Assembly (NCBI GenBank): GCA_902728285.1
Contig: CACVBU010000738.1
Span: 686,370-750,369, forward strand
Direction: 5' to 3'
Length of the DNA stretch: 64,000 nt
Source: Clytia hemisphaerica
Taxonomy: Eukaryota; Cnidaria; Hydrozoa; Leptothecata; Clytiidae
The notes beneath the pieces were generated by a model, which worked only from the letters and a program-made list of their open reading frames with translations, searched no databases and was not told the origin of the DNA. Below, in pieces: positions 26,101 through 29,100 of this stretch (within the stretch, counting starts at the first letter, position 1; the number at the start of each line of letters is the position of its first letter). The position numbers and the translations under genes are program-made.

Positions 26101-29100
26101 AAGAATCAGAGGAATGTTATAACACAGCTCTAACCCTATGTCCATCACATGCAGACTCGTTAAATAATCTAGCAAACATTAAAAGGGAACAAGGCAAAAT
26201 TGAAGATTCCATTGGATTGTACATGAAAGCGCTACAGGTGAGCCTAATAAACTATGTAATATGATTGAAAATTGATTTCAGATTTTTTTACATATTAGAC
26301 AGAAAGGGTAATTGAGTTGAGGGTGTGGTTAACAATACCCAATTTATATTTGTCACAGGTCTTTCCAGAGTTTGCTGCAGCCCACTCTAATTTAGCAAGT
26401 ATTTTACAACAACAAGGAAAACTCCACGAAGCATTGATGCATTACAAAGATGCAATAAGGTATTTAAAATGATTGTGTAATGCACCTTATTCATTTTCCA
26501 TAAATACTGTCCTCTTGCAGGTATTACCCGATTTTGCAGTGGGATACTCCAATTTAGCTTGTGTCTTACAAGAGCAAGGACGCCTCAAGGAAGCTTTACT
26601 GTATTATCAAGAGGCAGTGAGGTATTGTAATGGCATTTTTTAATAAGCTGAAAGTTTTTCTCTTACATGTCCAATATAACCTTTTATTACAAGTTTATTT
26701 TTTGTAAGATTTAATTTGCTTGTTTTGTTTCTACTAAAATGACACCTTTTAAAATGCTAATGTAATGTGTTTCTTCTCATTTGAAATAAACTTTTTTTCA
26801 ACAATTTTATTTCAGAATCCATCCGACTTTTGCTGATGCATACTCAAACATGGGGAATGCCTTGAAGGAAATGCAGGATATTCAAGGTGCAATCCAGTGC
26901 TACACCAGAGCCATTCAAATAAATCCTGGTTTTGCAGATGCCCATAGTAATCTTGCATCAGTATACAAAGACTCAGGAAATATTGCTGAGGCTATTCAAT
27001 CCTATAGAACTGCTCTTAAATTGAAACCAGAGTTTCCAGATGCTTATTGTAACCTTGCACATTGCTTACAAATAATTTGTGATTGGAATGATTATGATAA
27101 TCGTATGAAAAAACTGTTAACAATAGTTGATGATCAACTTGGTAAAAATCGATTGCCTTCAGTTCATCCGCACCACACCATGTTATATCCTTTGTCCCCA
27201 CAACAAAGAAAGGCTATTGCTAATCGTCATGGAAACCTTTGTCTTGATAAGGTATGTAATGACTGGTTTTCAATAACTTGAATTACAGTATGATATCTTT
27301 AGTCACATAACTTTGTATTGAAAACCCAGCTTCAGTTAAGGTTAAGCCAATTTTCATTCATTGATTGAGTCCTCTCCTGAAGCTTCCAATTTGTGAAGGA
27401 AATTTTATGAATTTTTTGGACCTCCATTTCTTTTTTTTTATCTCACAATTGATCACCTGGGAATCAATTTGAAAGAATGGCTGGCAAACTTGCTTTATAT
27501 AATTCACATAACCTTTTACATAATGAGCATTTTATTTTAGACAAAAATTAGGGGTTGTTTTAGAAAATCATGAAAAAACTAAATTTGGGTAGGAACTTAT
27601 TTTGATGAGACGGCAATATTTTTAAGTCCACTAAAGTGTAGACTAGTAAACTAGTCGGTTATTACTTATAATAAAACTGTCAATCAAATAATGTTAACAC
27701 TAATTAAATATTCATCGTGCGTGAGAGAAAAGGAAAATAACCGACTAGAAGCTTCTTCCAACGCCTTTTTTTTCACCTAAAATCGTAAGGAGAGACATAC
27801 AGATTTCTGTATGTCTGACCCGTGCGGGATCGCATTTATTTTTCTTTCTGTTTTTTACATTTTTGGAAATGCTCATTTATTTATATGTTCCCATGTTTAA
27901 TGTTACTATGAAATATCATTTAGTCAAAAAAGTTGGATGGATTCTCAAAAACCTAAAAAAGGTTGTAAAATTAAACAACGTTTTTTGAGGGAAGAAGCTT
28001 CTAGTCGTTGAAATTCAGAAAAGACACGCAACCTCACCTAAAGTGTAATAAATTAATCATGTTGGTCTTCAATGACCTTGAAATTCTGTTTTCTCTAATG
28101 ACTTAATACTTTTCCTTCGGAATAATTCCAATGTTCTTTCGTTTTAAGGTTGCTCTTCTTCACAAAGATCCTTACAAATACCCTACCGATTTAAAAGCAA
28201 GTGGAGGTCGATTAAGAATTGCTTACATCAGCAGTGATTTTTGTAATCATCCTACATCTCATTTGATGCAAAGTGTACCTGGTTTTCATGACCGCTCAAA
28301 AGTTGAAGTATTTTGTTATACCTTAACACCTAATGATCAAACTAGTTTCCGCAAAAAGATCGAAAGTGAATGTGAACATTTTATTGACTTAACTCAATAC
28401 GCTTGCCATGGACAGGCTGCAGATAAAATCAATAGCGATGGAATTCATGTCTTGGTCAATATGAATGGTTACACCAAAGGTGCACGAAACGAAATTTTTG
28501 CCTTACGACCCGCTCCCGTTCAAGTAAGCCATACTTCATGTTTAGTCGCTTTGAAATTTCAGCTTGAGAAATCATTTACATTACTCATGTTACTTTGCTC
28601 TATCGACTGCTATCAAGTCAGAAAGGTGGAAGAATGTTTTTGATGTAGCACGAGACTGGCTTGCTATTTAAAATTCATACTTAACAAAATATCAATTTTA
28701 TTTAGGTCATGTGGCTTGGTTATCCTGGCACTAGTGGTGCAACCTATATGGATTACATCATTACCGACAAAGAAACGTCGCCGTTGAAATATACGGAGCA
28801 TTACTCTGAGAAATTTGCGTACATGCCACATACGTTCTTTGTTGGTGACCATAAACAGATGTTCCCTCATCTTATCAAGGATGTCACTCAAGAAAAACGC
28901 AACGTAAATACAATTAATAGTGCAACAAACACTACATCGGTTATCACAACTAAAGGTGTGGAGCAATACATCGAAGAAAGAATAGACCAGCGCAAAGAAG
29001 AAGTTTCTGGAACGAAAGATAGCGGAGAACGTGTCCCGGAAACCCTGCCACAAATGTCACGTGCTTCATACGGTTTACCTGATGACGCTTTTGTGTTCTG

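What the first reader, a model, noticed from the sequence alone, without database searches (positions are those of the whole stretch)
26359..26621. Candidate mutually exclusive exons swap one TPR unit in OGT
Seen: two neighbouring 101-nt exons, each coding one full 34-residue TPR, 19 of 34 residues the same by my count, with identical phases (0 in, 2 out). Either can join the flanking exons in frame. Joining both shifts the frame and reaches a TAG 12 codons into the second. The intron between them is only 61 nt, the shortest mapped here, and may be too short to splice. Known: the TPR superhelix of OGT chooses its substrates, and I recall no such switch in described OGT genes. Inference: the animal may make two OGT forms that differ in one TPR surface, or hold an old and a new exon copy in competition.
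Basis: partly seen in the sequence, partly recalled or inferred. Interest (0 to 1): 0.88.

Follow-up and report, generated by a model that had tools for sequence, protein, structure and literature searches.

The report
Either-or exon pair in hydrozoan OGT
In what looks like a hydrozoan (a relative of jellyfish), the gene for the sugar-attaching enzyme OGT carries two versions of one exon that cannot both be used in a working protein, so the animal can probably make two forms of this enzyme; no RNA data were available to prove that both are made.

Summary
Exons A (26359-26459) and B (26521-26621) are 101 nt each, phase 0 in / 2 out, 19 of 34 residues and 70 of 101 bases alike. Either alone keeps the frame; both together, or neither, meets an early stop. 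The window is from a 417-Mb genome whose mitochondrial genes point to a hydroidolinan hydrozoan. The pair is identical on a second haplotype.

B is an old, constrained copy: pS 0.60, dN/dS about 0.23; Pfam TPR_1 scores it 38.3 bits against 36.4 for A. The 61-nt intron is an outlier: the shortest of 59 introns mapped in myosin and kinesin genes is 100 nt, and B's branch point should lie inside it, too near A's donor.

Best reading: a true mutually exclusive pair, enforced by crowding and by frame. It replaces TPR11 (human 356-389), keeps ladder Asn366 and changes groove and outer-face residues, among them Lys385, which in human OGT touches OGA. The kind of event is known; seven open-access literature searches showed no report of it in OGT. 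Splicing itself is untested.

The parts
25991..26237 (+). upstream OGT exon (end of TPR8 to TPR10 by human numbering), ends on a codon boundary; donor CAG/GTGAGC
26238..26358 (+). intron upstream of exon A, 121 nt
26359..26459 (+). exon A, 101 nt, phase 0/2; human-like TPR11 unit (31/34 with human 356-389)
26460..26520 (+). 61-nt intron between A and B; no AG before its terminal AG; branch-point-like (yUnAy) sites at +30 and +34 from A's donor
26521..26621 (+). exon B, 101 nt, phase 0/2; diverged TPR11 unit (19/34 with A, 21/34 with human)
26622..26815 (+). intron downstream of exon B, 194 nt
26816..27251 (+). downstream OGT exon, needs phase 2 entry
23699..30026 (+). mapped part of the OGT gene, from the second exon I placed to the stop codon (831-codon spliced frame, stop included, with either A or B); an earlier TPR exon begins near 23122 (placed by eye)

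Best explanation
Exons A and B are a tandem-duplicated, mutually exclusive exon pair in the OGT gene of a hydroidolinan hydrozoan. Either A or B, never both, is joined between 25991-26237 and 26816-27251, giving two OGT proteins that differ at 15 of 34 residues of TPR11. SHOWN: anatomy, frames, presence on both haplotypes, constraint between the copies, abnormal shortness of the intron against the controls used. INFERRED: (1) A's donor and B's branch point are too close (at most about 46 nt) for both to be assembled, so A-to-B splicing is sterically blocked; (2) any A+B or skipped message is frameshifted and removed by nonsense-mediated decay; (3) A, with the better-scoring donor and acceptor and near-human sequence, is the default and B is used in some tissue or stage; (4) both forms keep the lumen asparagine (N366) and so can still hold peptide backbones, but differ in groove side chains and in the outer helix-B face, so partner or substrate preference shifts.
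For: Frames and stops. Both haplotypes carry the pair, 0 differences over 263 nt. A vs B: pS 0.60, pN 0.22, dN/dS 0.225; differences by codon position 10/3/18; ten TPR positions (chosen after seeing the alignment) unchanged, against 5e-5 of 20,000 neutral simulations with uniform random changes; identity of 19 or more in 1.6%. Pfam: B scores above A for 5 of the 7 TPR families that list both (TPR_1 38.3 vs 36.4 bits) and below for 2 (TPR_11, TPR_12). Intron length: 59 mapped introns of myosin and kinesin genes (58 GT, 1 GC donor), minimum 100, median 390; rough estimates for 41 + 59 neighbouring hit pairs, minimum 100. The first AG upstream of B's acceptor is the last two bases of exon A, so the branch point should be inside the 61 nt (rule recalled). 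Splice scores: donors A rank 29 and B rank 10 of 59; acceptors A rank 20 and B rank 13 of 59. Mechanisms as described for human pairs: steric limit about 50 nt, frameshift and decay (PMC5740500, sections 7 and 10 read; PMC7969005, passages). No OGT locus besides this one and its allele was found.
Against: No RNA evidence at all. The steric limit is a vertebrate figure; some animals splice introns of about 60 nt (recalled), and the control set is two gene families plus OGT itself. Zero allelic differences over B alone is weak (probability 0.25 at the intron rate; 0.11 for B plus the 61 nt). B's donor is in the weaker sixth of the controls. dN/dS for the pair mixes A's branch (strongly conserved) with B's. 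Three kinesin hits with 33-45 nt of unexplained extra length, and one myosin hit with 21, were not examined and could in principle hide short introns.
Confidence: 0.74

Rival explanations
1. Productive/unproductive switch: A is the only protein-making exon; recognition of B mainly yields frameshifted A+B messages destroyed by decay, so the pair sets OGT level, as the decoy exon in intron 4 is thought to do in humans.
For: A+B gives an early stop. Human OGT is controlled through a decoy exon with a premature stop and a detained intron (PMC12017769 passages).
Against: A+B splicing needs the 61-nt intron, shorter than all 59 controls. A poison exon needs no protein-level constraint, yet B keeps TPR residues and dN/dS is well under 1. 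B alone is fully in frame.
Confidence: 0.1
2. B is a relic or rarely used duplicate in slow decay; all OGT uses A.
For: A is 31/34 with human, B only 21/34; B's donor scores lower.
Against: dS near 1.2 is long enough to collect stops or lose splice sites, yet the frame, both splice sites and the ten TPR positions looked at persist, and Pfam TPR_1 scores B no worse than A. A constitutive OGT acceptor (26816) ranks as low (10 of 59).
Confidence: 0.12
3. Both exons can be spliced together through cryptic sites, giving an in-frame longer superhelix.
For: A GT donor inside A (after 26398) and an AG inside B (before 26540) give an in-frame hybrid with a 141-nt intron.
Against: Both sites score low (donor rank 8, acceptor rank 6 of 59) and the hybrid breaks the 34-residue register; 0 of the 35 in-frame combinations listed, GC donors included, keep A whole.
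Confidence: 0.02
4. Assembly artefact (false local duplication).
For: The assembly does hold uncollapsed haplotypes, and the window haplotype carries a one-base frame break in an earlier OGT exon that the other lacks.
Against: A and B differ at 31 of 101 bases, and the arrangement is identical on two contigs.
Confidence: 0.01

Closest known systems
OGDH exons 4a/4b (vertebrates), PMC7969005 (passages seen)
   Same: Tandem-duplicated mutually exclusive exons of a metabolic enzyme; branch points of the second exon lie within about 50 nt of the first exon's donor and enforce either/or use; one copy changes a regulatory feature of the enzyme.
   Different: That intron is 118-131 nt in birds and mammals, with branch points mapped by experiment; here the whole intron is 61 nt and the branch point is only inferred. 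Gene and animal group differ.
alpha-tropomyosin / alpha-actinin mutually exclusive exons (cited in PMC7969005; recalled otherwise)
   Same: Steric exclusion by a branch point too near the upstream donor.
   Different: Muscle cytoskeletal genes; regulation known; no swap of a repeat unit.
Human OGT intron 4 decoy exon (PMC12017769, passages seen)
   Same: Alternative splicing of OGT with stop-bearing products.
   Different: An expression-level control inside an intron; no alternative protein sequence; not described as a duplicated exon in the passages seen.
Known OGT isoforms of mammals (recalled)
   Same: Forms of OGT that differ in the TPR domain.
   Different: They differ in the number of N-terminal repeats or the start, not by exchanging one internal repeat.

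Membership tests
Mutually exclusive exon pair (tandem duplicate) | Neighbouring exons of the same phases, similar length and similar sequence | tested here: met
   101/101 nt, phase 0/2, 19/34 aa
Mutually exclusive exon pair (tandem duplicate) | Either exon alone gives a full reading frame | tested here: met
   831-codon frames (stop included) for A and for B from 23699 on
Mutually exclusive exon pair (tandem duplicate) | A mechanism that forbids joint use (steric, splice-site class, or frame) | tested here: met
   Frame break shown; 61-nt intron and AG exclusion zone fit a steric block, which itself was not tested. U2/U12 incompatibility not seen: donors GTGAGC, GTATTT, GTATTG
Mutually exclusive exon pair (tandem duplicate) | Transcripts contain exactly one of the two | not testable with these tools
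   No RNA data held
Mutually exclusive exon pair (tandem duplicate) | Pair kept in related species | not testable with these tools
   The collections hold prokaryotes and viruses; scans gave 0 viral and 1 cyanobacterial relative, the latter at 32% identity
O-GlcNAc transferase (OGT) | TPR superhelix with asparagine ladder joined to the GT41 catalytic domain | tested here: met
   380 aa (TPR part and start of the following region) aligned end to end with human OGT, E 1.5e-245; the catalytic part of the 831-codon frame was recognised by eye only
Docker/selector RNA-structure type of exclusive splicing | Competing intronic base pairing | tested here: inconclusive
   None of 5 region pairs clearly beats shuffles (29-93 of 200 as low). 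The 61-nt intron folds at -8.6 kcal/mol (3.2% of 5000 shuffles as low), but 13 of 59 control intron starts fold as well

The most novel reading that the evidence does not exclude
The exon pair is a writer-eraser switch. In the human OGT-OGA complex the outer face of TPR11-12 covers the OGA active site, and Lys385 and Arg389 of TPR11 touch an OGA loop beside it (PMC10618255, passages). Exon A keeps Lys385; B has Gln385 and further helix-B differences from A (376, 378, 382, 383, 386, 388), while both keep ladder Asn366 and Arg389. Choosing B could therefore loosen OGT's hold on OGA without losing substrate binding, letting the animal set the two enzymes' mutual inhibition by splicing. The genome has two OGA-like genes, both with the Tyr286-Asp287 contact residues, but with a changed loop.
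Probability: 0.12. Interest if true: 0.88.

Novelty: new member of a known kind. Interest (0 to 1): 0.6.

Why it matters
OGT is usually one enzyme that must choose among thousands of targets; how its TPR superhelix does so is open. A natural pair of OGTs that differ in one internal repeat, with the peptide-gripping asparagine held constant, would be a ready-made experiment on which TPR surfaces choose partners. It also shows how a repeat-coding exon can become an either/or switch: an exon one 34-residue repeat long would normally just add a repeat when duplicated, but the 0/2 phase forbids that and locks the copies into alternatives.

Tried and rejected
RNA-structure control (docker/selector pairs, hairpin over A's donor): not better than controls, dropped. 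U2/U12 mismatch of splice sites: not seen. In-frame double inclusion through cryptic sites: only low-scoring options. Allelic diversity as proof of selection on B: too little power. Flank similarity to size the duplicated unit: none beyond chance. Relatives in viral and prokaryote collections: nothing useful. Whole-genome 18S search failed on the machine side and was not repeated. One search read exon A one base off and was not used. Splice-site scores of some OGT exon ends were off by one to a few bases and were redone.

Full report
WHAT IS THERE. The OGT gene lies on the + strand at about 23.1-30.0 kb. Exon A (26359-26459) and exon B (26521-26621) are both 101 nt, enter in phase 0, leave in phase 2, and are separated by 61 nt that begin GT and end AG. 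A reads [34 protein letters not shown] and B reads [34 protein letters not shown]: 19 of 34 residues and 70 of 101 bases are the same. A alone or B alone joins 25991-26237 and 26816-27251 in an open frame; from 23699 to the stop each gives 831 codons, stop included. A+B hits TAG at the 12th codon of B, and skipping both hits TGA at the 7th codon.

WHOSE GENOME. The window is C513:686370-750369 of a 417,433,876-base assembly in 951 contigs. The mitochondrial contig C900 (first 10,000 of 14,551 bases read) reads openly with TGA as Trp and has, in one direction, nad2, nad5, a gap where rns would fit, nad6, nad3, nad4L (named by eye), nad1, nad4, cob, cox1 (frames; 8 of them scanned with Pfam; nad2 and nad4 share one family there and were told apart by place and by eye). 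The blocks nad2-nad5, rns-nad6-nad3-nad4L-nad1-nad4 and cob-cox1 are those given for a siphonophore in PMC4655093, whose order is said to be like other non-aplanulatan hydroidolinans (passages read; the figure is not held). With recalled knowledge of cnidarian mitochondria I take the animal to be a hydroidolinan hydrozoan; the species is not known.

SECOND HAPLOTYPE. Contig C433 holds the same gene, 98.2% identical over 8.2 kb. Exon A, the 61-nt intron and exon B have 0 differences between the two. The nine other mapped introns have 52 substitutions in 3829 aligned bases, and eight other exons (the first exon and B not counted) 4 in 2389. For B alone this is weak evidence of constraint (probability 0.25 of no change at the intron rate; 0.11 for B with the 61 nt). 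No further OGT locus was found; one more hit (C939) is a 31% TPR match.

B IS AN OLD COPY UNDER CONSTRAINT. A is 31/34 and B 21/34 with human residues 356-389. B is nearer to A (19) than to the other seven full repeats compared (10-14). At 370 and 386 B matches human while A does not, so B probably did not arise from today's A; both come from one ancestor. Nei-Gojobori: pS 0.60, pN 0.22, dN/dS 0.225, with differences by codon position of 10, 3 and 18. With 31 random changes to A (uniform, no transition bias), 28% of 20,000 simulations have no stop, 1.6% keep 19 or more residues, and 0.005% keep all ten TPR positions that B keeps; I chose those ten after seeing the alignment, so that last figure flatters the case. 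Of the 7 Pfam TPR families that list both units, B scores higher in 5 (TPR_1 38.3 vs 36.4 bits) and lower in 2 (TPR_11, TPR_12); one more lists A only and one B only.

WHY ONLY ONE CAN BE USED. First, frame: both or neither is a frameshift. Because each exon is one 34-residue repeat long, a 0/0-phase duplicate would merely have lengthened the superhelix; the 0/2 phase forbids this. Second, space: I mapped introns in myosin and kinesin genes of the same genome. Of 85 myosin and 142 kinesin hits, 41 and 59 neighbouring pairs passed a contiguity filter, with estimated introns of 100 nt or more. In 20 fetched regions 59 of 59 pairs gave a junction (58 GT-AG, 1 GC-AG; 55 scored over 4), shortest 100 and 129 nt, median 390. 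The nine other mapped OGT introns are 121 to about 1260 nt. Limits: only two families, some copies probably allelic, and hits with extra length inside were not resolved (6 of 142 kinesin hits with 33-303 nt; 2 of 85 myosin hits with 21 and 222 nt). Third, the first AG upstream of B's acceptor is the end of exon A itself. By the usual scanning rule (recalled) B's branch point should then sit within the 61 nt; allowing about 15 nt to the acceptor (recalled) it is at most about 46 nt from A's donor, and the two full yUnAy sites are at +30 and +34. [quoted passage not shown] yet joined reads were seen for 83 of those 377, so frame alone is a leaky guard (PMC5740500, sections 7 and 10 read). The OGDH pair is the closest steric case that I read about (PMC7969005, passages). 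Splice-site scores put A ahead of B: donors rank 29 and 10 of 59, acceptors 20 and 13 of 59.

WHAT THE SWAP CHANGES. In the numbering of PMC10618255 (passages) the exchanged stretch is TPR11. Both forms keep N366 of the asparagine ladder, which binds peptide backbones (PMC5493779 passages: Asn356 in isoform-1 numbering, 10 lower). Fifteen positions differ between A and B. By standard TPR numbering (recalled), 362, 369 and 373 lie on the groove-facing side of helix A and 376-388 on the outer helix B. In the human OGT-OGA complex OGA docks on the outer face of TPR11-13, and K385 and R389 touch an OGA loop next to its active site. A keeps K385; B has Q385; R389 is kept by both. The genome has two OGA-like genes (C23 and C915, 11 exon hits in all). 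Both show the NDYD motif that holds Y286-D287, but the loop at about 222-226 is changed: C23 reads T-R-A-L-P where human reads T-F-C-Y-P, and C915 differs too. This is against a literal transfer of the human loop contact. Human work also found that mutating N366 did not affect OGA binding, and that ladder hot spots for OGA lie in TPR3, 6 and 7.

LITERATURE. Seven open-access searches bear on novelty: OGT with mutually exclusive exons and TPR (1 paper), OGT with duplication terms, mutually exclusive exons with Hydra, Clytia and cnidarian, OGT with cnidaria, OGT with mutually exclusive exon, TPR with mutually exclusive exons, cnidaria with mutually exclusive exons. I saw these listings, and passages of six of the papers: PMC12017769, PMC12061472, PMC13170309, PMC11765297, PMC5896119, PMC3912159. 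None of what I saw describes exchanged OGT repeat exons; in the two human OGT papers the phrase refers to a genome-wide event class. Subscription papers and genome annotations were not searched, so this is not proof of absence.

VERDICT. The pair is real, old, constrained and built to be either/or. That it is spliced so, and to what end, awaits RNA. It is a new member of a known class, in a gene where it would be unexpected and useful.

Noticed in passing
window about 23366 (first TPR exon placed in OGT): The window haplotype has a one-base gap that breaks the reading frame of an OGT exon; the other haplotype (C433) is open there. Probably a homopolymer assembly error, possibly a real null allele.
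   Followed up: partly
36073-37950 (-): A Sec1/Munc18-type gene in one uninterrupted 625-codon frame (Pfam Sec1, 443 bits), although OGT and the myosin and kinesin genes here are intron-rich: intronless copy or retrogene.
   Followed up: partly
60730-63315 (+): A class C (7tm_3) receptor-like gene in one uninterrupted 861-codon frame.
   Followed up: partly
47013-53382 (+): Two long neighbouring frames (915 and 1222 codons) that read like gag and pol of a BEL/Pao-type LTR retroelement (by eye only; not searched).
   Followed up: no
5364-5738 (-) and 13321-14514 (+): LIM-domain exon and an EF-hand protein exon of neighbouring genes.
   Followed up: partly
L035-L045 (contigs C23 and C915): Two diverged OGA-like (NAGidase) genes in this genome, whereas mammals have one OGA (recalled).
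   Followed up: partly
window 12-32 kb against C433: Several insertions or deletions of a few hundred bases or more between the two haplotypes around OGT, so the assembly holds uncollapsed haplotypes.
   Followed up: no
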